Source: a virus
Strand: one strand, 5' to 3'
Virus record (IMG/VR): IMGVR_UViG_3300032215_000682
Span: 1-64,000 of that record
Length of the DNA: 64,000 nucleotides
Part shown: positions 1 to 21,381 of the stretch, piece after piece
Numbering within the stretch: position 1 is the first letter of the stretch
How the letters are laid out: each line of letters opens with the position of its first letter
Notes under the pieces: generated by a model
Database searches by the model: none
Told to the model about the DNA's origin: nothing
What the model saw: only the letters and a program-made list of their open reading frames with translations
Program-made: the position numbers and the translations under genes

Positions 1-42
1 ATATTAAAAGAAAATAATAAAGATAAGATAGAATGGATATAG
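1..42 (+). CDS. 3' end of an upstream gene (partial)
   Basis: Frame 1 is open from the window edge to a TAG at 40-42 and reads ILKENNKDKIEWI. The other two forward frames stop within the first 17 bases. It would overlap the next start (ATG at 33) by 10 nt, an overlap style seen repeatedly on this strand. Too little is visible to suggest a function, and it could be chance. Confidence 0.35.
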   Translation: MLKENNKDKIEWI

Positions 43-620
43 AAATAAAACATGATGATGAGAATAAATTTAAGAATTATTTTTATGACAGTACAAAAGC
101 AAGACTTGATGCAATAATGTGTCCATATGATTTAAAAATAAAAGTTTATCATTATAAAGCTGTATATTTTCCAGAGTATTATGGGGGATGGTTTTGGGTG
201 TATGATGAAAATAGATTTATGGGAAAATTCACTATACAAGTGTTTCCTCATTGTTGTGGTGTTGCTACAATAACAGCAGATTATGGAGAATTTTCATTTA
301 GAAATAATGAAAAAGAAAATGATTTTATAATGTTAATGGCTTGTTTGTTAGCAAAAGACTATCCAAATGTTATTGCTATTGATAAATGGGATGAAGCTAA
401 TTATAAATCATATATAAAATATGGATGGAAAGCAAGTGAAATATTTCTAGGAAAAAATGATAGTAAGCTTGTATATTTATCAAAAAATATAACAGATTGG
501 GATGTATTAAAAGATATAAATGATTTATTTAATGAAGAGAATAAGGATATTAAGCAGGCATCCAAGCCATTCACCACTAAGAAATCTTCTACCAAAAGTG
601 GAGAAGTCTTGTGCAGTTAG
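33..620 (+). CDS. GNAT-like protein of the amidoligase cluster
   Basis: Protein of 195 aa. The middle part (about residues 60-155) has the feel of an acetyltransferase fold: strands around KFTIQVFPHCCGVATI, a long helix FIMLMACLLAKDYP, and a late N-x-x-x-Y-x-K-x-GW stretch (NYKSYIKYGWKAS) like the C-terminal part of GNAT domains. GNAT-fold proteins are known members of amidoligase gene clusters, where some are thought to act as ligases rather than acetyl-CoA transferases. The ATP-grasp gene that follows starts inside this gene. The C-terminal 30 residues are Lys/Ser-rich and probably disordered. The family assignment is inferred from pattern and context, without a database match. Confidence 0.55.
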   Translation: MDIEIKHDDENKFKNYFYDSTKARLDAIMCPYDLKIKVYHYKAVYFPEYYGGWFWVYDENRFMGKFTIQVFPHCCGVATITADYGEFSFRNNEKENDFIMLMACLLAKDYPNVIAIDKWDEANYKSYIKYGWKASEIFLGKNDSKLVYLSKNITDWDVLKDINDLFNEENKDIKQASKPFTTKKSSTKSGEVLCS

Positions 621-1317
621 GTTTGGCAGTGTAACAGAGGCTGTATGTGACATAGAAATAAATAGTGTTGAAAGTATTAAAAATAGTGCTTCTAAACTTA
701 GAATGAAGAAATGTTTTACAGAAGCAAATGTTAAAACAGCAGAATGGTGTACATGTTCTAATTTAGAAGATTTAGTTAATAAAGTAATGGATGTTACTAG
801 AAGTTGGAAATATAAACTTGTATGTAAAAGTTTATATGGCTCTAGAAATAGGGGTAATACACTAATAAATAATGAAGATGATTTAGTAATATGGAGTAAT
901 GGTAAAAATTTAGAAAATTATATTTTTGAAAAATATTATAACTATTCAAGAGAATATAGACTCCATATTACAAAAAGTGGATGTTTTTATAGTTGTAGAA
1001 AACTTCTAAAAGAAGATACACCAGATAATCAGAGATGGTTTAAAAATAGTTTGAACTGTGTTTGGATTTTAGAAACTAATGAATTATTTAATAAACCAGA
1101 TAATTGGGAAGAAATAGTTAATGAATGTATTAAAGCATTAAAAGCTATTAAATTAGATGTGGGAGCTTGTGATGTCAGAGTAGCTAAAAATACAAATGAT
1201 TTTAAAATCATAGAAATAAACTCAGCAGCAAGTTTTGGTGATATAACATTATCTAAATATTTAGAACAAATTCCTAAAATTATAGAACAGAAAATAGTAG
1301 AAAAGAATGGGGCATAA
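520..1317 (+). CDS. RimK-like ATP-grasp ligase
   Basis: Protein of about 265 aa. ATP-grasp enzymes join a carboxylate, activated as acyl phosphate, to an amine. Visible signs are a nucleotide-binding Lys in LVCKSLYGSRNRGN (about residues 105-118), SREYRLHI (about 148-155), and the metal-binding end DVRVAKNTNDFKIIEINSAAS, in which E-I-N is the typical Mg-binding pair. The opening ILSRHPSHS resembles other phage ATP-grasp proteins and supports a start at 520 or, equally well, the in-frame ATG at 532. Either start lies inside the upstream gene and gives an unusually long overlap of 89-101 nt in another frame. It ends 11 nt past the start of the next gene. It likely acts with the amidotransferase and amidoligase genes downstream. 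Confidence 0.75.
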   Translation: MIYLMKRIRILSRHPSHSPLRNLLPKVEKSCAVRFGSVTEAVCDIEINSVESIKNSASKLRMKKCFTEANVKTAEWCTCSNLEDLVNKVMDVTRSWKYKLVCKSLYGSRNRGNTLINNEDDLVIWSNGKNLENYIFEKYYNYSREYRLHITKSGCFYSCRKLLKEDTPDNQRWFKNSLNCVWILETNELFNKPDNWEEIVNECIKALKAIKLDVGACDVRVAKNTNDFKIIEINSAASFGDITLSKYLEQIPKIIEQKIVEKNGA

Positions 1318-2026
1318 TGTAAATGTTGATGTATTTAATGATAATGATGAAGTAATAGAAGAAGTAAAAAGATATGCTTGTGATGGAAATATTCAACCTA
1401 AACGTGTTACAAATGGTGTAAAGTGGAATAGATATATAGAAACTAATTGTATATATTCTATAGAAGAAATTCAAAAATGGTGTGATTTTATGTGTGAGTG
1501 TGGGTGGAAATGTGAATTCTCTTCTGAACTTATTACTATCACTATTGATAAATTAGAATTTATAGATGGTAAATATAAAACAGTAGAAAAAGAAATAGAA
1601 TGTTATACAATCACAACATATAAAAAAGACTATATTGATGATGTGCATATGATGATAGCACATACAGCTATTAGAATGATATATTATGATTGGAATGATA
1701 ATCCTTATGAAGATGTTGTAAAAGCTGTATTTGAAATATCTTTAGATATTGATCCTTTAGAAAAATTAATATTAGCACATTATAAAGTGGGAAAATTAGA
1801 AGGAAGTCATGGACTTTTTTGTGTTAAAAATAATTCTAATTATGTTTATGATTTTAAAAATACACATGTAATAAAATTACAGAATTCTAAAAGTTTAGAT
1901 ATAAAAACAAAAGTAAATGAAACATTTGAAATAATAAATGAAGGTGTTAATATAGATGAATTAATATCATTGATGCAAAGTGAGAAATATGAAAAAGCTT
2001 ATAAATTAATTAAAAATGAAAAATAA
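1307..2026 (+). CDS. conserved-looking unknown protein in amidoligase cluster
   Basis: Protein of 239 aa that I do not recognise. The first 80 residues contain a cysteine-rich stretch (WCDFMCECGWKCEF, about residues 62-75) that could bind metal. The rest alternates strands and helices and ends in a charged helical tail. It overlaps the ATP-grasp gene by 11 nt, and its last base is the first base of the following start codon (TAATG), so it is translationally linked to both neighbours. Its place between the ATP-grasp and the class I amidotransferase suggests a role in the same modification pathway, possibly as substrate or scaffold. That is inference only. Confidence 0.7.
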   Translation: MGHNVNVDVFNDNDEVIEEVKRYACDGNIQPKRVTNGVKWNRYIETNCIYSIEEIQKWCDFMCECGWKCEFSSELITITIDKLEFIDGKYKTVEKEIECYTITTYKKDYIDDVHMMIAHTAIRMIYYDWNDNPYEDVVKAVFEISLDIDPLEKLILAHYKVGKLEGSHGLFCVKNNSNYVYDFKNTHVIKLQNSKSLDIKTKVNETFEIINEGVNIDELISLMQSEKYEKAYKLIKNEK

Positions 2027-2664
2027 TGAATAAAAAAGTATATGTAGTAGGAAATCAAACAGGATATGCTAATTGGCTATTAGAAATGGGAATGAAACTT
2101 GTAGTAGATCCTTATATAGCTGATATAGCAATGTTTACAGGAGGTGCAGATGTTGATGCTTCTTGGTATGGAGAAAAGAATGGTAGTAGAAACTATCCTG
2201 ATTATCAAAGAGATGTATTTGAAATCAAATATTATAAATTGTTCTTAGAATTAGGAATTCCCATGATAGGAATATGTAGAGGAGGTCAATTATTCACTAT
2301 AATGAATGGTGGAAAACTTGTTCAACATTCTTCACATCCTTATGCCCATATTATAAAAACAAAAGATGGAGAAGTATATGAAATAAATAGTATGCATCAT
2401 CAACAATTTCTTCTTACAATGCCTGAAGAAGATTATGAGCTTATAGCATGGAGTGATAATATTTCTAGAATGCATTTAGGAGAAAATGATATAGACTATT
2501 GTTTTAATGAAGATTATAAAGAACCAGAAGTTGTATTTTTTCCAAAAACACAATGTCTAGCAATTCAATGTCATCCTGAATGTATTGAGAATAATAGAAC
2601 AATGGAATGGTTTAAAGAATTAGTAAATGTATATTTATTAAAAGAAGAAAATGTTGAAGCATGA
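2026..2664 (+). CDS. class I glutamine amidotransferase-like protein (peptidase C26 type)
   Basis: Protein of 212 aa with the class I amidotransferase triad: nucleophile Cys84 in GICRGGQLF, and His183 and Glu185 in CHPE near the C-terminus. The oxyanion part FTGGADVD (about residues 38-45) and the MHHQQF motif match the gamma-glutamyl hydrolase / PuuD (peptidase C26) branch. Such enzymes hydrolyse gamma-glutamyl or other amide bonds, or release ammonia from glutamine. In amidoligase clusters a C26-type enzyme is thought to trim or remove the amide-linked group. Start and stop overlap the neighbouring genes by 1-4 nt (an ATGA junction at the 3' end). All active-site residues are present, so it should be active. 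Confidence 0.85.
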   Translation: MNKKVYVVGNQTGYANWLLEMGMKLVVDPYIADIAMFTGGADVDASWYGEKNGSRNYPDYQRDVFEIKYYKLFLELGIPMIGICRGGQLFTIMNGGKLVQHSSHPYAHIIKTKDGEVYEINSMHHQQFLLTMPEEDYELIAWSDNISRMHLGENDIDYCFNEDYKEPEVVFFPKTQCLAIQCHPECIENNRTMEWFKELVNVYLLKEENVEA

Positions 2665-2864
2665 AAATAACTTTAAAAGAAAATTTAGTAGACGCAAAAA
2701 TAGGAGATGTAGTTAAAAATACAGTTGTAAATCAAATTGGTATTTTAACTAGTAATAAAACTCATATTTGGCAAGTATTTTCATTAAGTACTCTTAAATA
2801 TCAAGATTGGGTTACGTGTAATATAGAAAAATTTAATGGTACAATAACATTAGAAAATAATTAA
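2661..2864 (+). CDS. small unknown protein (67 aa)
   Basis: The start overlaps the stop of the amidotransferase gene (ATGA). The protein reads as a small beta-rich domain: MKITLKENLVDAKIGDVV, then alternating hydrophobic strands with ILTSNKTHIWQVF and WVTCNIEKFNGTITLE. No motif is recognisable. The tight coupling suggests it is made together with the amidoligase-cluster enzymes; SH3- or KOW-like small barrels have similar spacing, but that is only an impression. Confidence 0.6.
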   Translation: MKITLKENLVDAKIGDVVKNTVVNQIGILTSNKTHIWQVFSLSTLKYQDWVTCNIEKFNGTITLENN

Positions 2865-2866
2865 AA

Positions 2867-2980
2867 ATGAAAGTATTTAAATTAAATTATTTCAACTTTT
2901 GTCCTCAATGTGGGAGTACAAACATAGAATTAACACCCTATCAATTTAGCATTTGTAATGATTGCTATTATCAAGATTAA
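2867..2980 (+). CDS. zinc-ribbon mini-protein (37 aa)
   Basis: A short gene 2 nt after the previous stop, ATG at 2867 and TAA at 2978-2980. It encodes MKVFKLNYFNFCPQCGSTN followed 15 residues later by CNDC. The two CxxC knuckles (CPQC and CNDC) are the standard four-cysteine zinc ribbon. Peptides like this often serve as adaptors or carriers; amino-carrier proteins of amide-ligation pathways also contain zinc ribbons, but nothing here proves that role. The codon style matches its neighbours. Confidence 0.6.
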   Translation: MKVFKLNYFNFCPQCGSTNIELTPYQFSICNDCYYQD

Positions 2981-3005
2981 AAAACAAAATAAAAACAAAT
3001 AATAA

Positions 3006-4679
3006 ATGTGTGGAATTTGGGGATATAATGGAGACAGCCCTCCTAATGAAAATGCTTTGAAAATACTAGCTATGTATAATCTCAATAGAGGAGATGATGG
3101 CGTAGGAGTATTTTGGGATGGAAAAATAATAAAAGGTGTAGGAACAGAAGCTAATATTTTTAGATTTTTAGAAAAACATGCTTTACTTCCTATTGAAAAA
3201 TTATTCACTGTTATAGGACATAATAGAAAATCTACAGCAGGTGCAAACACTATAGCAAATTGCCATCCTTTTAGTTATTTTACTAAGAAACAAAATCAAA
3301 AAGAAGAAATTCCATTTGCTGTAGGTGCTCATAATGGCACTATTAAAAATAGAGAAGAACTTATTAAGAAATACAAGGTACAAAGCCAAAATGTTGATTC
3401 TGAAGAAATTCTTAATATTATTATCAATTCTTATTTTGATGAGAAAAATATAGATGTTCTTAATGATTATGAAGGATTTGGATGCTTTGTATGGACATTT
3501 CCTAAAGAAAATAAGCTTTTTATATTTAGAGGAAAAAGTGGACAAGGTGAAGATGTATCTGGTGAAAGACCAATGTTCTATTGGAAAAAACAAGGAGAAA
3601 ACAAAATCTACATTTCTTCAATGAAAGATTCTTTGCTTTCTATATGTAATGATGAAGGTAAAGAAATAAAAGAATTTGAAGCTAATAAAATTCATATTAT
3701 TGAAAATGGTGTATTAAGCACATTTAAAAGAACATTTGATAGAACAGCTAGAAATTTTGTAGAGCCTTATACACAAACATACACATATACAAGTAATGTA
3801 AAAAATGTTGATGCTAAAGATGTATTTATAAACTTTCCTTCAAAAGTAATAGCTAAATTTAATAAGAAAAATCCAAAAAGAGACTCTAACGGTAATGTAA
3901 TGCTTGCAACAGAACCTTTTATTGATATTAGAGAGCTAATGAAAATTAGAAAAGATAAAACTCTTGGAGGTAAAATACATTTTTGTGCAGGTAGATGGTG
4001 GAAAAATGGTCATGTTATTGGTAATAGACTTAAAGAAGGCGATTCTTTAATTCTTGATGACAATGGATATTTTGCTTCTTCTAATAGTCATGATAAAAAA
4101 ACAGCTAAAGAATATTTCTTTTGGGGAGGATGGATGTGTAAAAGTAAAGAATCTATGGAAGAAATGATTGAAATTTATAAAAAAGGAGAACATATGGAAA
4201 ATATAAATTCCATGAATTGTTTTAATGTTTATAAGTGTAAAAAATTCTTTCTTGGGCTTGTATTTGATGATAATAGACTTGGTGGATATAATGCTCTTAG
4301 TAAAATGGAAGACATTCAAGGGTATTCCTATATAACAGGAAATTACACACCTCCATTTAATCAAGGTAAAACATATACTTTTAATAGTGGACATTTTAAG
4401 AAAGTATTAATAGACATTCCTATAGAAGAAAATGACACAGAAGAGACTTTTGATGATGAAGAGCCAGATACAACAGGTGAAATATTGTTTGAAGCTGTAG
4501 AAACTCTACAAAATCTCACTAAAGATTTAGAAAGTGCTAATGTAACAAATAATAAGAAAAAAGTACAAGTGTTAAAATGGCTTGGAGAAGCCTATATATT
4601 TATTAAAGAACATTTTGATGCTTATACAAAAGAATTAAAAGAAGAAGTGCCATTTAAAAATTATAATGAAATTTATTAA
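3006..4679 (+). CDS. class II (Ntn) glutamine amidotransferase with C-terminal extension
   Basis: Protein of 557 aa. The N-terminus is MCGIWGYNG, so Cys2 becomes the catalytic N-terminal nucleophile after Met removal, as in GlmS, PurF and AsnB. Further class II signs are LNRGDDGVGVFWDG (about residues 27-40), GHNRKSTAGANTIANCHPF (about 79-97), AHNGTIKNREEL and VDSEEIL, which form the glutamine pocket. The domain covers about residues 1-230 and releases ammonia from glutamine. The remaining 300 residues show no known synthase domain; they include an aromatic, lysine-rich middle and an acidic C-terminal region. It lies 2 nt before the amidoligase gene, so ammonia or an amide transfer step shared with that enzyme is likely by inference. 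Confidence 0.85.
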   Translation: MCGIWGYNGDSPPNENALKILAMYNLNRGDDGVGVFWDGKIIKGVGTEANIFRFLEKHALLPIEKLFTVIGHNRKSTAGANTIANCHPFSYFTKKQNQKEEIPFAVGAHNGTIKNREELIKKYKVQSQNVDSEEILNIIINSYFDEKNIDVLNDYEGFGCFVWTFPKENKLFIFRGKSGQGEDVSGERPMFYWKKQGENKIYISSMKDSLLSICNDEGKEIKEFEANKIHIIENGVLSTFKRTFDRTARNFVEPYTQTYTYTSNVKNVDAKDVFINFPSKVIAKFNKKNPKRDSNGNVMLATEPFIDIRELMKIRKDKTLGGKIHFCAGRWWKNGHVIGNRLKEGDSLILDDNGYFASSNSHDKKTAKEYFFWGGWMCKSKESMEEMIEIYKKGEHMENINSMNCFNVYKCKKFFLGLVFDDNRLGGYNALSKMEDIQGYSYITGNYTPPFNQGKTYTFNSGHFKKVLIDIPIEENDTEETFDDEEPDTTGEILFEAVETLQNLTKDLESANVTNNKKKVQVLKWLGEAYIFIKEHFDAYTKELKEEVPFKNYNEIY

Positions 4680-4681
4680 AA

Positions 4682-6268
4682 ATGATAGAAATAATAGGAA
4701 AATTGGAAATGGTGAAGACAATTACAGGAGCAATTGTTAAAAGAAATAATTGTATTCAAGATAAAATGACAGGAAAATATTATGAAAAAAATGTTTCTTG
4801 TTTTCAAGTGAAAGTTGGTGATGGAAGAATGAAGTGGAATAGAATTGATAATGGAAGAATTGGCTATTATTATAATGCTCAAAAATGGTGTTTAATTTCT
4901 CAACTTGAGAATTCAAGGCTTTTAAAAGGTTTTTATTCTACAGATAATACAATGGGATGGTTTGATGATTCTCCAGAAGTGGTGTATTTAAAAGATGGTT
5001 TGAAGTCTTATAGCAGCATTCCATGTGTTAATAAAGAAATAGCTTTAAAATTAGGTTATTTAGAGAGCTTATGGGACAATTATTATTATAATGGAAGAAC
5101 TCTCAGTGTAGCTGATAAAATGGCCTTAAAAGAGCCTAGAATTGTAAAATATAAGAATTTAGAATTTAATTACAATGCTGCTGATAATAATTCTGCTTTT
5201 ATTAAAATAAAACAAGAATATGCTAAGAATGAATTAAAAATAGAAGGAAGAACACATGATGTTTCTAAATTGTTATTTGGAAAAAGTTTTGGCATAGAAG
5301 TCGAGAGTAGAAATGGAAGCATTCCTGAACACCTTTTAGGCCCTCTAGGACTTGTTCCATTAAAAGATGGCTCATTAAGACTTGCTAATGGAGAAGAACC
5401 TTATGAATATGCTACAGTGCCTTTTTATGGAGCTAAAGGACTACAATCTATTAAAGGAATTTGTGAAGAATTAAACAAAAGATGTTTATTTGATGATGGA
5501 TGTTCTTTACATATTCATTTAGGAAATGTAAAATATGATAAGCTTTCTATTATAGCTTATTACATGCTTATACAAGCTATTCAAGAAGAACTTTATTCCA
5601 TATTTCCAATGTATAAAAGAAGTGAGATGAAATATTTGAATAAGCAAAAAGACTACAATGCTCCTCTTCCTAATATAGGTTTGCTTACTAATACTTTGTA
5701 TAAAAAGAAATATACATCTGCTATTGAATTTAATTTAGATGTTGAAAAATATTTTTCAAAGATAATTGAATTTCTTACTGATAATAAATATTCTCAATGG
5801 GATAGTTGGGAAACTAATATGACTAGCCACCCTCTTGGAGATACCAAATGGAATATCATGAGTAGGTATAAAATTTTTAATGTAAATGGTTTAATATTTT
5901 CTAATACTCGTACTATTGAGGCAAGAATTCATCCTGGCACATTTAATTATACCAAAATAACAAATTGGCTTTTTATTTGTATAGCTATTATAACATATGC
6001 TGAGAAAAATCAAAAAGATATTATTTCAAGAAAAGTAAAACCAACATTAGAAGATATTCTTAATGGATTTAAAAATGCTTTTGGAGAATATCAATTTGAA
6101 GATGTTACAGGAAGTGAAATAGCTAAATATTTAATTGATTATGTTAATTTTAGAAAAGATGCTATTAAATATGCTAATGATGGAGGTGATGTTCATGCTA
6201 GAAATATAGAATTTGAAGCTGACAAAAATTTTAAATTTAATAATGGTGTTTTAAATACAATTTATTAA
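4682..6268 (+). CDS. amidoligase (COOH-NH2 ligase, glutamine-synthetase fold)
   Basis: Protein of 528 aa. The catalytic part, about residues 200-440, has the amidoligase series: FGIEVESRNG (about 202-211) with metal-binding acidic residues, KDGSLR with EYATVPF, the CSLHIHLGN motif (about 275-283), and TIEARIHPGTFN (about 411-422). The His and Glu/Arg residues are the expected metal and ATP ligands. The family forms amide bonds between carboxyl and amino groups and is related to glutamine synthetase and glutamate-cysteine ligase. The 200-residue N-terminal region is separate and unrecognised; it may bind the acceptor protein. It lies 2 nt after the class II amidotransferase. This is the key enzyme of the cluster; substrate unknown. 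Confidence 0.82.
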   Translation: MIEIIGKLEMVKTITGAIVKRNNCIQDKMTGKYYEKNVSCFQVKVGDGRMKWNRIDNGRIGYYYNAQKWCLISQLENSRLLKGFYSTDNTMGWFDDSPEVVYLKDGLKSYSSIPCVNKEIALKLGYLESLWDNYYYNGRTLSVADKMALKEPRIVKYKNLEFNYNAADNNSAFIKIKQEYAKNELKIEGRTHDVSKLLFGKSFGIEVESRNGSIPEHLLGPLGLVPLKDGSLRLANGEEPYEYATVPFYGAKGLQSIKGICEELNKRCLFDDGCSLHIHLGNVKYDKLSIIAYYMLIQAIQEELYSIFPMYKRSEMKYLNKQKDYNAPLPNIGLLTNTLYKKKYTSAIEFNLDVEKYFSKIIEFLTDNKYSQWDSWETNMTSHPLGDTKWNIMSRYKIFNVNGLIFSNTRTIEARIHPGTFNYTKITNWLFICIAIITYAEKNQKDIISRKVKPTLEDILNGFKNAFGEYQFEDVTGSEIAKYLIDYVNFRKDAIKYANDGGDVHARNIEFEADKNFKFNNGVLNTIY

Positions 6269-6269
6269 T

Positions 6270-6551
6270 ATGAAAAAATATTTAACATTCATTTGTAATA
6301 CTTATTATCCTTTAGGAGGTTTTAGTGATTTTTATAAATCTTTTGACACTTTAGAAGATTTTTATAATGATATTATAATACTAGGATTAAGAGAAGATGG
6401 TAGTGGTGTTATTCAAGTGAAAGAAAATTTTATTTCTACTTATGAATTAGATTGTAAATTTTATGATAGTGATTACTTTGGAAAAATTCAAATAGTAGAT
6501 AGAGATACTTTTGAAATAATAGCTATTCCTAAAAGTTGGCTAAAAGATTGA
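6270..6551 (+). CDS. small unknown protein (93 aa)
   Basis: Starts 1 nt after the amidoligase stop and so belongs to the same transcription unit. Mixed alpha/beta with many aromatic residues (TYYPLGGFSDFYKSFDTLEDFYND) and a strand-rich C-terminal half. No family recognised. It is the last gene before the TTGAA-type element that begins to appear in front of genes from 6.5 kb onward. Confidence 0.6.
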   Translation: MKKYLTFICNTYYPLGGFSDFYKSFDTLEDFYNDIIILGLREDGSGVIQVKENFISTYELDCKFYDSDYFGKIQIVDRDTFEIIAIPKSWLKD

Positions 6552-15256: not shown

Positions 15257-16990
15257 TTGAAAACAAAAAAAGAAGGAATTGTAAAAATCTTGTGTTTAGA
15301 TCAAGAGCATAGTGGGAGCAGATTCCACAGATTGGTGCTCCCATACAAAGAATTACAAGGAAAACAAATTGATATAGGAGAAGAAAAAGCTACATTAGAA
15401 ATATCATTTAGACAATGTAATGTATATGAATATGTACTACTAGAAGATGATTTTAAAAATAATGATGTAATTGTAGTGAATTGGGTGTATTTTAATCCAA
15501 TTATAGAAATATCAGAGTGGAAAACTAAATATAATTGTGCTTTAGTGCAGGATATTGATGACTGGATTGAATTACCTAAGTCACATATTAATAGTGGTTC
15601 TAATTATGAGAAACTAATACCTCAAGCTGTAATAGCAGATGTTGTTACAACAAGCACAGAAAGACTATCAGCTCATTTTATACAATTTAATGATATGGTG
15701 TCTATTAGTCCTAATTATTTACCAAATAAAGGACAATTTGTAGAAAAACCTGAAAGAAAAAAAGGAAAAGTGGTATTAGGATTTTGTGGAGGTGTTTCAC
15801 ATTATAATGATTGGATGAGCATTAAAAATGTCATAAACAAAATATGTAATGATAAAACTATACAAGAAAAATGTAAATTTGTATTAGCAGGATATTCTGA
15901 TAATAAATGGTGGAATGAAGTGAAAGCAATGTTTGATAAAAAGAATATTGAATTAGAAATTGTTAATGCTCTTTCTGTTGAAGAGTATATGAAAGCTTAT
16001 GACAGTATTGACATACTTTTAGCCCCTCTAATCCCATCAGAATATGCTGAATGTAAAAGTGCTTTAAAAGTGATAGAATGTGGAATTAAACACATACCAA
16101 TTATAGGTTCTCCTATATATTTAACAAAAGAGGTACCATGTGTATTACCAGCAGATAGTCCTAAAAGCTATTTAGATGCTATTTTAGACCTTATTAATGA
16201 TGATAAGTATATTTCTGTAGGAAAAGAAATGAATGAGGCTGTAATGGCTTTAAATCATTTTGATAAAAGAATAGAAAATCTTGGTTCTATAATAGAATAT
16301 TTAATGAATGAAGATTTGGAAAAGGTACCTGAAAATTTGAAAATTACAGGAATATGTTATAAAGAAGAACAATTTACACCTTTTAACAAATATTTAAATG
16401 TAAATAAAGAATTTCCTTGGAGATTTGAGTATCAAGTGATGCTAAATAAACTTGAAGAAATTAAAGCCTATAAAGAAACAGATTATGTAGGATTTTTGTC
16501 TCATAAATTTCAAACTAAAACAGGAATTCCTGCTAAAGTGTTGTATAAAATGTGGGAAGAAATTCAAAATATTGATGAATATGATTTTGTTAATCTAGCT
16601 CCTACTTATTGGCATTCTGGTAAAGGTTATTTAATCTTTAGTGAAGTACAACATTGTGGGCTTACTAATTTAGTAATAAGAACATGTAATCATTTGGGTA
16701 TTAAATATAATGATAATCCAGAGTGTGTAACATATTCTAATTTCTTTTTAATGAAGAGAGATGTATATATAGATTATTTAGAAAATTATATTATTCCAGC
16801 TATTAAATTTCTTGAAAATGAAATTTGGGAAGATGTTAATAGAGATGCAGGATATGTTGGAGGACTTTCAAGAGAAGAGTTATTTAAAGCTTGTGGATTA
16901 ACACATTATAACTTTTTAACATTTATTCTTGAGAGGCTGGTATTACAATATATTTCTCATAAAAAATTGAAATTTATAAATACAATATAA
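15257..16990 (+). CDS. two-domain glycosyltransferase
   Basis: Protein of 577 aa with a TTG start. The N-terminal GT-B part (about residues 8-355) opens KILCLDQEHSGSRFHRL. It has VVLGFCGGVSHYNDW (about 172-186), where the donor domain begins, and DILLAPLIPSEYAECKSALKVIECG (about 253-277), the GT4-style donor-sugar loop with the E-x7-E relative. The C-terminal part (about 365-577) is separate. Its YSNFFLMKRDVYIDYLENYI and NFLTFILERLVLQYI resemble the end of DUF4422-type GT-A glycosyltransferases. Its last base is the first of the next start codon. It could add two sugars in sequence; the acceptor is unknown. Confidence 0.72.
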   Translation: MKTKKEGIVKILCLDQEHSGSRFHRLVLPYKELQGKQIDIGEEKATLEISFRQCNVYEYVLLEDDFKNNDVIVVNWVYFNPIIEISEWKTKYNCALVQDIDDWIELPKSHINSGSNYEKLIPQAVIADVVTTSTERLSAHFIQFNDMVSISPNYLPNKGQFVEKPERKKGKVVLGFCGGVSHYNDWMSIKNVINKICNDKTIQEKCKFVLAGYSDNKWWNEVKAMFDKKNIELEIVNALSVEEYMKAYDSIDILLAPLIPSEYAECKSALKVIECGIKHIPIIGSPIYLTKEVPCVLPADSPKSYLDAILDLINDDKYISVGKEMNEAVMALNHFDKRIENLGSIIEYLMNEDLEKVPENLKITGICYKEEQFTPFNKYLNVNKEFPWRFEYQVMLNKLEEIKAYKETDYVGFLSHKFQTKTGIPAKVLYKMWEEIQNIDEYDFVNLAPTYWHSGKGYLIFSEVQHCGLTNLVIRTCNHLGIKYNDNPECVTYSNFFLMKRDVYIDYLENYIIPAIKFLENEIWEDVNRDAGYVGGLSREELFKACGLTHYNFLTFILERLVLQYISHKKLKFINTI

Positions 16991-17254: not shown

Positions 17255-17446
17255 ATGAATATAACAGGATGGCCTTTAGGAGAAAATGATTTAATAGAAG
17301 CTTATGAGGAGTACATTAAAATTCTTTATAGAAAAATAAATGATATATCAAAAACAGAAAATTATTTAGACTCTAAATTTACAAAAGAAACTATGAAAGC
17401 AAGAAAAAATATTGAAGATATTAAAAAGAAATTAAAAAATGGATAA
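17255..17446 (+). CDS. small helical unknown protein (63 aa)
   Basis: Starts 1 nt after the previous gene and ends 8 nt inside the GT2 gene. Opens MNITGWPLGENDLIEAYEEY and continues as a charged helix. A W-P-x-G-E-x-D-L-I start is seen in small phage proteins, but I cannot assign a function. Confidence 0.6.
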   Translation: MNITGWPLGENDLIEAYEEYIKILYRKINDISKTENYLDSKFTKETMKARKNIEDIKKKLKNG

Positions 17447-18164
17447 TTTATTAGAAGTTTTTGTTACAACATGGAATAATGAAGCTATTATACAAGATTT
17501 TATTGATTGGTACAGAGATAGGATTCCTAATTGTAGGATAACAATGTATGATAATATGTCTTCAGATAACACTGTTGAGATTTGTAAAAATAATGGATGT
17601 AATGTAATATCATTTGATACAAATGGAAAAATGGATGAATCTAAATTAATGGAAATTAGAAATAATTGTTGGAAAGAATCTAAATGTGAATATGTATGTA
17701 TTGTTGATTCAGATGAACTTGTAGATATAAATGAAGAAATTCTTAAAGAATTTAAATTCAATATTATTAAATGTACAGGATATGAAATGTTTGGAAATGA
17801 GGGAGATAAATTAGAAGATTTAGTGTATGGTGTACCTAGCATTGGCTATTCTAAAACAGCTATTTTCCACAAAGATTCTATTGAAAAAATAAATTATGGA
17901 GCAGGAAGTCATTCCTGTTCTCCTATTTCTACTAATAATAAAGGTGTAAGAGAACAATTAGTATATAATGATGTTGAAATACCTCTTTATCATACTAAAT
18001 GGAGAAGTTGGTCTAATGGTATTGGAAAAGCTCATGAAATAGCTCCTAGAAGAAGTGAGGGGGATATATTAAAAGGATGGAATTTCCATTATTCATTACA
18101 TGATAATGTTCATATGGATTATTATAGGTCAGGAATGAAAAATAGAATTAAAATAAAAGAATGA
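17439..18164 (+). CDS. family 2-like glycosyltransferase
   Basis: Protein of 241 aa. Starts at the ATG overlapping the previous stop. GT-A features are LLEVFVTTWNNEAIIQDFIDWY at the N-terminus, YDNMSSDNTVEICKNNG (the N-x-S-x-D-x-T nucleotide-sugar motif, about residues 36-52) and VCIVDSDELVDINEEIL (the D-x-D metal site, about 86-102). The C-terminal part contains HTKWRSW and a final basic region. Glycosyltransferases of this type use UDP- or GDP-sugars. Between a two-domain transferase and a GT11-like gene, it should take part in building a short glycan. Confidence 0.8.
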   Translation: MDNLLEVFVTTWNNEAIIQDFIDWYRDRIPNCRITMYDNMSSDNTVEICKNNGCNVISFDTNGKMDESKLMEIRNNCWKESKCEYVCIVDSDELVDINEEILKEFKFNIIKCTGYEMFGNEGDKLEDLVYGVPSIGYSKTAIFHKDSIEKINYGAGSHSCSPISTNNKGVREQLVYNDVEIPLYHTKWRSWSNGIGKAHEIAPRRSEGDILKGWNFHYSLHDNVHMDYYRSGMKNRIKIKE

Positions 18165-20189: not shown

Positions 20190-20536
20190 CAGAAAAAGAA
20201 ATAAAAGATAAAATAGAAGTTTTAAAAAAATCATTTCCTAATTTAGATGCTATATTAGTAGATTATAATGGAAGTGGAGATAGTTTTGATAGTTTTAATT
20301 ACATAAGAGGATTAAAAGAAAAAGAAGAAATTAATATTAATATTGATTATGATACAGATTTTAATTCTTTACTGTGGGAAATATTAGATAAATCAGATGC
20401 AGATTTTAATAATGAAGGTAGTGAAGGTACTATCACTATAGATTTAAAAAATATAAATGTCATTTGTGAAAATTATTATATTGAATACACAAGAGTATTA
20501 TCTGGTAAGTTTTTCCTTTTAAATAATAAAGAATGA
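20186..20536 (+). CDS. DUF6878-like protein
   Basis: Protein of 116 aa. The pattern is AILVDYNGSGDSFDSFN (V-x-Y-x-G-S-G-D-S, about residues 21-37), then NIDYDTDFNSLLWEIL, DADFNNEGSEGTITIDLKN and YYIEYT. The order G-S-G-D-S, then N-x-x-G-S-E-G-x-x-x-I-D, then Y-x-x-Y fits what I recall of DUF6878, small proteins of unknown role found on plasmids and phages. Overlaps both neighbours by 4 nt. Confidence 0.6.
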   Translation: MTEKEIKDKIEVLKKSFPNLDAILVDYNGSGDSFDSFNYIRGLKEKEEININIDYDTDFNSLLWEILDKSDADFNNEGSEGTITIDLKNINVICENYYIEYTRVLSGKFFLLNNKE

Positions 20537-21381
20537 TTTTATACAAAGATTGGGGAAAGCACATAAGGTTGGGTAATTGGCTTTTTATTTATTCAGGACT
20601 TTCTGCTATATCTTATAAAACTGGTAATCCTATGTATTTACCAGAAAATTATTTCTTATGGCAATATTTAAAATATCCTCCAGAATTTGATAATAATATT
20701 TCAGTAGATGAAACATTTCATTTTAGACAAACTAACTATACTAAAGATGAATTTAATTATCTAATAGATTATTTTTCTTTAAATAGAGATAGAAATATAA
20801 ATATAAATTTAGGGTCACATCTTCAATCAGAAAAGTTTATAGAAAGTGATATAGATTATATTAAAACTATAATGCAATTTAAAGAAGAAGAAGTGCAAAA
20901 AGTTAGAAATAAATATTCTCATATTTTAAATAAAAAAACTATTGGAATAGGAATCAGACTTGGAGATTTTGTTAATCATGGATGCTTTTATCAAATACCT
21001 CTAGAATGGTATTTAAAAGCTCTACAAGCTGAGTTTAAAGATTGGATGGACTGTAACATATTATTTTTCTCAGATGACATAGAGAAGCTTAAAACTATAT
21101 TTAAGAGAGAGAATTATTATTTTGCAACACCAAATAATACACATACACATATTGACTCATTTAAGCATTATCATGGTAATCCTATGGAGCAATTTATATT
21201 AGGAACATTATGTCAAGGATTTGTGGGAGGTTCTAGCACCTTTAGCTGGTGGCAAATGTGGTATATACATAATAATGGAGGAAAAGTAGTACATAGTGGA
21301 CAAAACTTAGCTGGAGAATGTTTACAGAAATTTTATAATCCTGATTACTATCCAAAAAACTGGAAATTATTTCCTTGTTAA
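20533..21381 (+). CDS. GT11-like alpha-1,2-fucosyltransferase family protein
   Basis: Protein of 282 aa. RLGNWLFIYSGLSAISYKTG (about residues 12-31) corresponds to the G-x-L-G-N-Q-x-F start of GT11. TIGIGIRLGDFVNHG (about 136-150) is the H-x-R-x-G-D nucleotide-sugar motif with the His replaced by Gly. GGSSTFSWWQMW (about 234-245) matches the S-x-S-T-F-S-W-W block. GT11 enzymes move fucose from GDP-fucose to galactose. It is the third sugar-transfer gene of the cluster, and the missing motif His may mean an altered donor or reduced activity. Overlaps the DUF6878-like gene by 4 nt. Confidence 0.78.
   Translation: MILYKDWGKHIRLGNWLFIYSGLSAISYKTGNPMYLPENYFLWQYLKYPPEFDNNISVDETFHFRQTNYTKDEFNYLIDYFSLNRDRNININLGSHLQSEKFIESDIDYIKTIMQFKEEEVQKVRNKYSHILNKKTIGIGIRLGDFVNHGCFYQIPLEWYLKALQAEFKDWMDCNILFFSDDIEKLKTIFKRENYYFATPNNTHTHIDSFKHYHGNPMEQFILGTLCQGFVGGSSTFSWWQMWYIHNNGGKVVHSGQNLAGECLQKFYNPDYYPKNWKLFPC

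What the first reader, a model, noticed from the sequence alone, without database searches (positions are those of the whole stretch)
33..6551. Amide-ligation cluster with two amidotransferases in a crAss-like phage
One operon holds a GNAT-like protein, an RimK-like ATP-grasp, a C26/class I amidotransferase with intact Cys84/His183/Glu185, an N-terminal-Cys class II amidotransferase, an amidoligase with HIHLG and IEARIHPG motifs, a zinc-ribbon peptide and two to three unknown proteins, all overlapping or within a few bases except the 25-nt gap before the class II gene. Clusters mixing amidoligase, ATP-grasp, GNAT and amidotransferase genes are known from genome surveys and predicted to make peptide tags or modify cell wall or proteins, but the chemistry is unproven. 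Here enzymes for both making and removing amide bonds are present, together with a possible carrier (zinc ribbon, 2867-2980). Possible targets are the host cell wall, the virion, or an injected metabolite.
Basis: partly seen in the sequence, partly recalled or inferred. Interest (0 to 1): 0.8.

Follow-up and report, generated by a model that had tools for sequence, protein, structure and literature searches.

The report
Phage gamma-glutamyl ligase cassette, crAss-like
A crAss-like phage carries a known but biochemically untested set of phage enzymes that appear to build and trim gamma-glutamyl amide bonds; part of the set lies about 16-17 kb away and had been missed, and what the enzymes act on is still unknown.

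Summary
Bases 33-6551 encode a co-directional operon with a RimK-like ATP-grasp, a C26 class I amidotransferase-fold hydrolase, a class II (Ntn) amidotransferase and an Amidoligase_2 enzyme, all with intact catalytic residues. It is not a new kind of cluster. It belongs to the phage cassette already called a putative "peptidoglycan modification module" (phiEco32, LUZ24, PA11, RIO-1/HP1), predicted by Iyer 2009 and Hardies 2013 and never tested biochemically in any paper I could search. The record is circular (123-bp terminal repeat), and two more members lie 16-17 kb upstream across the record ends: a COOH-NH2 ligase (genome 100002-100862) and a second C26 (98254-98892). A survey of viral contigs found the ATP-grasp, COOH-NH2 ligase, class II amidotransferase and amidoligase together on one strand in 99/99 loci, with amidotransferase and amidoligase adjacent in 108/109. 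Structure models give a GlmS/EgtC-like Ntn domain and a glutamine-synthetase/GCL-fold ligase. The common denominator is gamma-glutamyl chemistry: two GS-fold ligases make gamma-glutamyl amides; C26 and Ntn enzymes, and GGCT in most relatives, remove them. The substrate is unknown. The zinc-ribbon "carrier" is private to this phage.

The parts
33..620 (+). GNAT-like protein, 195 aa; lineage-specific; probable degenerate acyl-CoA loop
   Evidence: No Pfam/PHROG/NCBIfam hit; no viral relative found. Motif-level alignment (PHCC......GWK...) to GNAT-like genes near relatives' cassettes, L021/L119/L120; L021's gene passes the Pfam Acetyltransf_1 cut-off, 20.8 vs 20.7 bits. A profile of those three did not report this protein.
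520..1317 (+). RimK-like ATP-grasp ligase, cassette core
   Evidence: phrog_2599 7e-32; K103, E137, E145, R147, D218, E232 98-100% conserved in 125 homologues.
1307..2026 (+). unknown 239-aa protein; one distant homologue, next to ATP-grasp and COOH-NH2 ligase in L021
   Evidence: hmmsearch E 3.6e-4 to L021:9217-9987 only.
2026..2664 (+). Peptidase C26 / class I amidotransferase-fold gamma-glutamyl hydrolase (C26A)
   Evidence: PF07722 5.5e-16; Cys84-His183-Glu185 conserved; PDB matches of the C26 profile: Lin1909, 7d4r/7d53 amidotransferases, PuuD.
2661..2864 (+). 67-aa protein; counterpart upstream of the class II gene in the nearest relatives only
   Evidence: Similar 79-aa ORF at the same position in L088/L089.
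2867..2980 (+). 37-aa zinc-ribbon ORF, not conserved
   Evidence: CxxC...CxxC; found in 1 of 108 cassette loci.
3006..4679 (+). class II (Ntn) glutamine amidotransferase-like protein, cassette core, with an unassigned C-terminal region
   Evidence: PF13522 6e-8; C2/R74/N110/G111/D131; model pLDDT 79, residues 2-260 align to PurF/GlmS (Z 22-25) and EgtC (Z 22).
4682..6268 (+). Amidoligase_2 carboxylate-amine ligase, cassette core, with extra N-terminal domain (residues 1-180)
   Evidence: PF12224 4e-7; model pLDDT 92; residues 181-515 have the GS/GCL fold, best Z 11.5.
6270..6551 (+). 93-aa protein of phrog_1411 (unknown); not part of the conserved cassette
   Evidence: phrog_1411 4e-7; no cassette-locus homologue at E 1e-3.

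Best explanation
This is a member of the conserved phage COOH-NH2-ligase/amidoligase cassette (phiEco32/LUZ24/RIO-1 type) in a crAss-like phage, split over two sites of a circular genome. Most likely mechanism: two glutamine-synthetase-fold ligases (Amidoligase_2 in the window, COOH-NH2 ligase at genome 100002-100862) activate a glutamate gamma-carboxyl with ATP and join it to an amine. The RimK-like ATP-grasp adds a further amino acid. The Ntn class II enzyme and the two C26 enzymes act on gamma-glutamyl amides, either hydrolysing glutamine for ammonia or removing gamma-glutamyl groups that served as carrier or protecting group. Shown: homology, intact active sites, fold (modelled for amidoligase and class II enzyme), co-conservation and synteny. 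Inferred: gamma-glutamyl specificity and order of steps. Unknown: the substrate. Cell-wall peptide precursors, which contain a natural gamma-D-Glu link, are the leading published guess.
For: Family hits. The missing partners were found in the same circular genome. Four core genes sit on one strand in 99/99 loci, and class II-amidoligase are adjacent in 108/109. HP1, whose cassette is published as a peptidoglycan-modification cassette, carries homologues of all core genes (PMC5498523). The amidoligase fold matches glutamine synthetase, 1-naphthylamine GS, YbdK, plant glutamate-cysteine ligase and Dop. The class II domain matches EgtC as well as GlmS/PurF. C26 matches PuuD-type hydrolases. 87 of 88 core-complete loci with adequate left flank also carry C26 and/or GGCT. 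That GS-fold ligases activate Glu gamma-carboxylates, and that EgtC, PuuD and the butirosin enzyme BtrG remove gamma-glutamyl groups, is established knowledge from memory.
Against: No biochemistry exists for any phage cassette in the papers I could search. The 87/88 figure equals what independence predicts (1.1 expected with neither, from the counts), so a functional swap of C26 for GGCT is not shown. Class II domain similarity to GlmS and PurF is as strong as to EgtC, so it may be an ammonia source. Two cassette-bearing records had neither C26 nor GGCT in the searched DNA (L009, L063), though both may be fragments. The GS fold of the COOH-NH2 ligase is taken from the family literature, not modelled here. 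The class II C-terminal region and the amidoligase N-terminal domain have no assigned role.
Confidence: 0.6

Rival explanations
1. Peptidoglycan precursor modification: the cassette adds or removes amino acids on UDP-MurNAc-peptide or lipid II during infection, to block superinfection or to ready the wall for lysis (the published hypothesis).
For: Published for homologous cassettes (PMC5498523; PMC11945000 citing Hardies 2013; PMC10580990 citing Iyer 2009). Stem peptides contain gamma-D-Glu links (established knowledge). Present in phages of very different hosts.
Against: No muropeptide data found. In the crAss-like set the cassette sits between primase and UDG/exonuclease genes rather than with lysis genes. 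Both ideas, superinfection block and lysis aid, are untested.
Confidence: 0.3
2. DNA or nucleotide modification: the cassette builds an aminoacyl or amide group on a modified base, since it lies inside the replication module.
For: Location among primase, UDG, exonuclease, RNR and polymerase genes. Amino-acid-modified thymines are known in other phages (established knowledge).
Against: No thymidylate synthase/hydroxymethylase homologue in 6 of 10 cassette genomes including this one. No QueC in any of the 10, with the control positive in 12 genomes. HMUDK gave nothing anywhere, so it is uninformative.
Confidence: 0.08
3. Cofactor tail or virion glutamylation: the cassette remodels glutamate tails of folate-like cofactors or adds Glu to a phage or host protein, RimK-style.
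For: The ATP-grasp scores alike with MptN (H4MPT:alpha-Glu ligase, 1.7e-7) and RimK (2.9e-7). C26 is the fold of folylpolyglutamate hydrolase. T4 folate-polyglutamate baseplates and RimK glutamylation of S6 are established precedents.
Against: Both scores are far below the curated cut-offs (about 30 bits vs 350 and 143). Cassette genomes do not consistently carry thymidylate synthase. No target protein co-varies with the cassette: the other frequent families near it are, where identified, replication genes.
Confidence: 0.15
4. A small gamma-glutamyl metabolite is made as a counter-defence or host-takeover compound rather than a modification of a macromolecule.
For: Enzyme logic resembles secondary-metabolite pathways with gamma-glutamyl protection, such as butirosin and ergothioneine (established knowledge; EgtC-like fold).
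Against: No direct evidence; no export or regulator gene was seen to travel with the cassette.
Confidence: 0.2

Closest known systems
Putative peptidoglycan modification cassette of RIO-1/PSA-HP1, LUZ24, tf, PaP3, PA11, phiEco32, CW02 (Iyer 2009; Hardies 2013; PMC5498523, PMC3890496)
   Same: ATP-grasp, COOH-NH2 ligase, Amidoligase_2 and class II GATase, most relatives with GGCT, on one strand in the early/replication region (papers).
   Different: Here two sites about 16 kb apart, two C26 hydrolases instead of GGCT, and private extra genes (GNAT-like, 239 aa, 67 aa, zinc ribbon).
Cassette of Crassvirales Cellulophaga phi14:2 and cr108_1, and of Leptolyngbya phage Lbo-JY46
   Same: Same core, similar order, next to primase and/or UDG in the two Crassvirales.
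   Different: phi14:2 has GGCT and no C26 in its whole genome. cr108_1 has C26 and no GGCT found. Lbo-JY46 has both.
Gamma-glutamylation/deglutamylation pairs: PuuA-PuuD, butirosin BtrJ-BtrG, ergothioneine EgtA-EgtC
   Same: Works like: GS-fold, GCL-fold or ATP-grasp ligase paired with a C26, GGCT or class II Ntn gamma-glutamyl remover (from memory).
   Different: Not homologous as pathways; the phage set has three ligases and an unknown substrate.

Membership tests
Phage COOH-NH2 ligase/amidoligase cassette | RimK-like ATP-grasp | tested here: met
   phrog_2599 7e-32; homologous to the phi14:2, Lbo-JY46, HP1 and PA11 genes.
Phage COOH-NH2 ligase/amidoligase cassette | Amidoligase_2 (PF12224) | tested here: met
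   4e-7, 30.6 bits over cut-off 22; GS/GCL fold.
Phage COOH-NH2 ligase/amidoligase cassette | phiEco32-like COOH-NH2 ligase type 2 (PF14395) | tested here: met
   In the same genome at 100002-100862, 1.2e-6, 28.4 bits over cut-off 25. A genome-level search missed it.
Phage COOH-NH2 ligase/amidoligase cassette | class II amidotransferase directly upstream of the amidoligase | tested here: met
   3006-4679, 2 nt before 4682; adjacent in 108/109 loci.
Phage COOH-NH2 ligase/amidoligase cassette | a gamma-glutamyl-removing enzyme (GGCT or C26) | tested here: met
   Two C26. GGCT not found (control positive in 9 genomes); GGCT is absent from 10 of 88 core-complete loci, so it is not defining.
Phage COOH-NH2 ligase/amidoligase cassette | modifies peptidoglycan | not testable with these tools
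   No biochemical test found in the papers searched.
Pup-type protein tagging | small peptide carrier conserved with a PafA/Dop-fold ligase | tested here: not met
   Dop is among the fold matches, but the zinc-ribbon candidate is private (1/108) and the 67-aa protein is shared only with L088/L089.
Crassvirales (host phage) | crAss-type TerL, portal and capsid | tested here: met
   phrog_6681 TerL, phrog_6547 portal, phrog_35737 virion structural protein. TerL and capsid match crAss-like phages, nearest isolate Lbo-JY46 at 38%.

The most novel reading that the evidence does not exclude
The cassette makes a previously unknown gamma-glutamyl-linked product (a wall modification or small counter-defence metabolite) by a build-with-protecting-group-then-trim route. 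It would be a phage-exclusive pathway shared by crAss-like gut and marine phages, Pseudomonas and cyanobacterial phages. The ATP-grasp lineage is almost absent from cellular genomes: 2 loci among 84,980 species, one on a 9-kb contig that carries much of the cassette.
Probability: 0.3. Interest if true: 0.8.

Novelty: new member of a known kind. Interest (0 to 1): 0.42.

Why it matters
The cassette is one of the more widespread untested enzyme sets in phages, predicted in 2009 with no chemistry found since. Showing that it is a core feature of many crAss-like and related phages, that it is essentially phage-specific, and that its parts converge on gamma-glutamyl chemistry gives a concrete, testable substrate class. 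It also points to isolates (phi14:2, HP1) in which the long-standing peptidoglycan guess can be checked. No open-access paper I could search mentions crAss-like phages and amidoligase together.

Tried and rejected
Single-sequence search for amidoligase relatives in viral contigs found none; the alignment search worked. Idea that C26 and GGCT replace each other: 69 loci with both, 9 GGCT only, 9 C26 only, 1 neither, which is what independence predicts. Whole-record searches then found extra C26 in several 'GGCT only' records, so it is dropped as a statistical claim. Zinc-ribbon carrier: private. The 67-aa protein as a family-wide partner: only L088/L089. The class II C-terminal region and amidoligase N-terminal domain are not related to each other by profile, and no PDB match covered either (barely tested, so not proof of a new fold). 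No relative of gene 33-620 in viral contigs. PF14395 genome-level search gave a false negative. HMUDK search uninformative. Iyer 2009 and Hardies 2013 are not held, so their content is taken from citing papers.
Full report
**What is there.** Profile searches place four of them firmly: RimK-like ATP-grasp (520-1317), Peptidase_C26 (2026-2664), class II amidotransferase (3006-4679) and Amidoligase_2 (4682-6268). The GNAT call for 33-620 has no family hit. It aligns by motif with GNAT-like genes found near relatives' cassettes (L021, L119, L120), one of which passes the Pfam cut-off, but a profile of those three did not report it. I treat it as probable but weak.

**The window shows only part of the set.** The record is 115,636 bp with a 123-bp terminal direct repeat, so base 1 is an arbitrary cut. 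A UDG-superfamily gene (just under the Pfam cut-off) lies immediately upstream across the junction. About 16-17 kb upstream lie a second C26 gene (genome 98254-98892; PF07722 3.7e-22) and a COOH-NH2 ligase (100002-100862; PF14395 'Phage phiEco32-like COOH.NH2 ligase-type 2', 1.2e-6, over cut-off). The nearest relative by cassette (L088, 40% identical amidoligase) is split the same way, with its COOH-NH2 ligase and both C26 genes at a separate site upstream of the DNA polymerase. A genome-level PF14395 search had missed the gene, so negative genome-level searches here should be read with caution.

**Host phage.** Terminase, portal and virion structural proteins match crAss-like PHROGs. The closest isolate by TerL is Leptolyngbya phage Lbo-JY46, followed by csAssE-Sib and Cellulophaga phi17:2/phi4:1. 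'crAss-like' is supported.

**Conservation as a unit.** Alignment-based scans of viral contigs returned 80 loci by ATP-grasp and 80 by amidoligase. After removing duplicates, ATP-grasp, COOH-NH2 ligase, class II enzyme and amidoligase occur together on one strand in 99 of 99 loci that hold all four. The order was ATP-grasp, COOH-NH2 ligase, class II, amidoligase in 78, and with the first two exchanged in 20. Class II and amidoligase are adjacent in 108 of 109, with a median gap of 2 bp. These loci were chosen by ATP-grasp or amidoligase, so the figures describe such loci, not all phages. The module usually lies between primase and UDG/RusA/exonuclease genes. A scan of 84,980 bacterial and archaeal species gave only two ATP-grasp relatives, one on a 9-kb contig that carries GGCT, ATP-grasp, C26, split COOH-NH2 ligase and class II genes. 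This ATP-grasp lineage therefore appears to be essentially viral, within the limits of pattern-based scanning.

**Active sites and folds.** Across 64-125 homologues, the ATP-grasp Lys/Glu/Asp set, both C26 triads, the COOH-NH2 ligase G-D-E motif and the amidoligase E-x-E, H-x-H and E-x-R motifs are 96-100% conserved. C2/N110/G111/D131 of the class II enzyme are invariant and R74 nearly so in 77 sequences. The amidoligase model (pLDDT 92) has a GS/GCL fold over residues 181-515. Its best matches are 1-naphthylamine GS, YbdK, plant glutamate-cysteine ligase, glutamine synthetases and Dop, tied within Z about 10-11.5. The class II model (pLDDT 79) matches PurF, GlmS and EgtC over residues 2-260.

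**Mechanism.** From established knowledge, GS-fold ligases activate a glutamate gamma-carboxyl. C26 enzymes such as PuuD, Ntn enzymes such as EgtC, and GGCT enzymes such as BtrG remove gamma-glutamyl groups. Everything in the cassette apart from the ATP-grasp therefore converges on gamma-glutamyl amides. I propose a build-and-trim route, in which gamma-glutamyl serves as tag, carrier or protecting group while the ATP-grasp adds another residue. Homology, folds, intact catalytic residues and co-conservation are shown. Specificity, order and substrate are inferred. I tested whether C26 and GGCT substitute for each other: the counts (69 both, 9 and 9 single, 1 neither) are what independence predicts, so I do not claim it.

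**Known status.** The same set was described in LUZ24-like phages (PMC3890496), as a 'peptidoglycan modification cassette' in RIO-1-like phages with phiEco32, PA11, tf, LUZ24 and PaP3 as relatives (PMC5498523), and again in 2025 (PMC11945000). These accounts trace the idea to Iyer 2009 and Hardies 2013, neither of which is held here. Homologues of the cassette genes in HP1 were confirmed directly. I found no biochemical test in the papers searched. This is therefore a new member of a known kind, with a split layout and lineage-specific extras.

**Targets considered.** Peptidoglycan remains the published guess. DNA modification is disfavoured: thymidylate synthase/hydroxymethylase is absent in 6 of 10 cassette genomes and QueC in all 10. 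Cofactor or protein glutamylation and a small metabolite remain possible. The zinc ribbon is not a conserved carrier.

Noticed in passing
L119:6103-6879, L081:6767-7687, L169:7845-8693, L130:10625-11458, L020:15683-16483: LAGLIDADG endonuclease ORFs sit between two pieces of the COOH-NH2 ligase or amidoligase genes in several relatives, suggesting introns or similar mobile elements aimed at conserved cassette genes. An Rfam search of seven such loci found no known intron family.
   Followed up: partly
window 15257-16990, 17439-18164, 20533-21381; L006:12356-13498: Four glycosyltransferase-like genes (GT1-like, GT2, GT11, GT2-like), possibly for virion or host-surface glycosylation.
   Followed up: no
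L021:15288-16808, L009:16045-17493 and 12 other loci: A second, diverged class II amidotransferase-like protein of about 420-500 aa, often just downstream of the amidoligase.
   Followed up: no
window 1-123 and the last 123 bases of the record: Exact 123-bp direct terminal repeat: the virus record is complete or circular, so gene clusters at base 1 continue at the other end.
   Followed up: yes
L003:4174-6075, L151:5778-6578, L159:4635-5645, window 1307-2026: A 240-330-aa unknown protein often follows or neighbours the ATP-grasp gene but differs between lineages; possibly a fast-evolving substrate or partner protein.
   Followed up: partly
L119:1457-1975 and L140:2753-3271 (with neighbouring second copies): Two tandem GGCT-like genes in one subgroup of cassettes; the first copy is diverged (in L119 just under the Pfam cut-off).
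   Followed up: no
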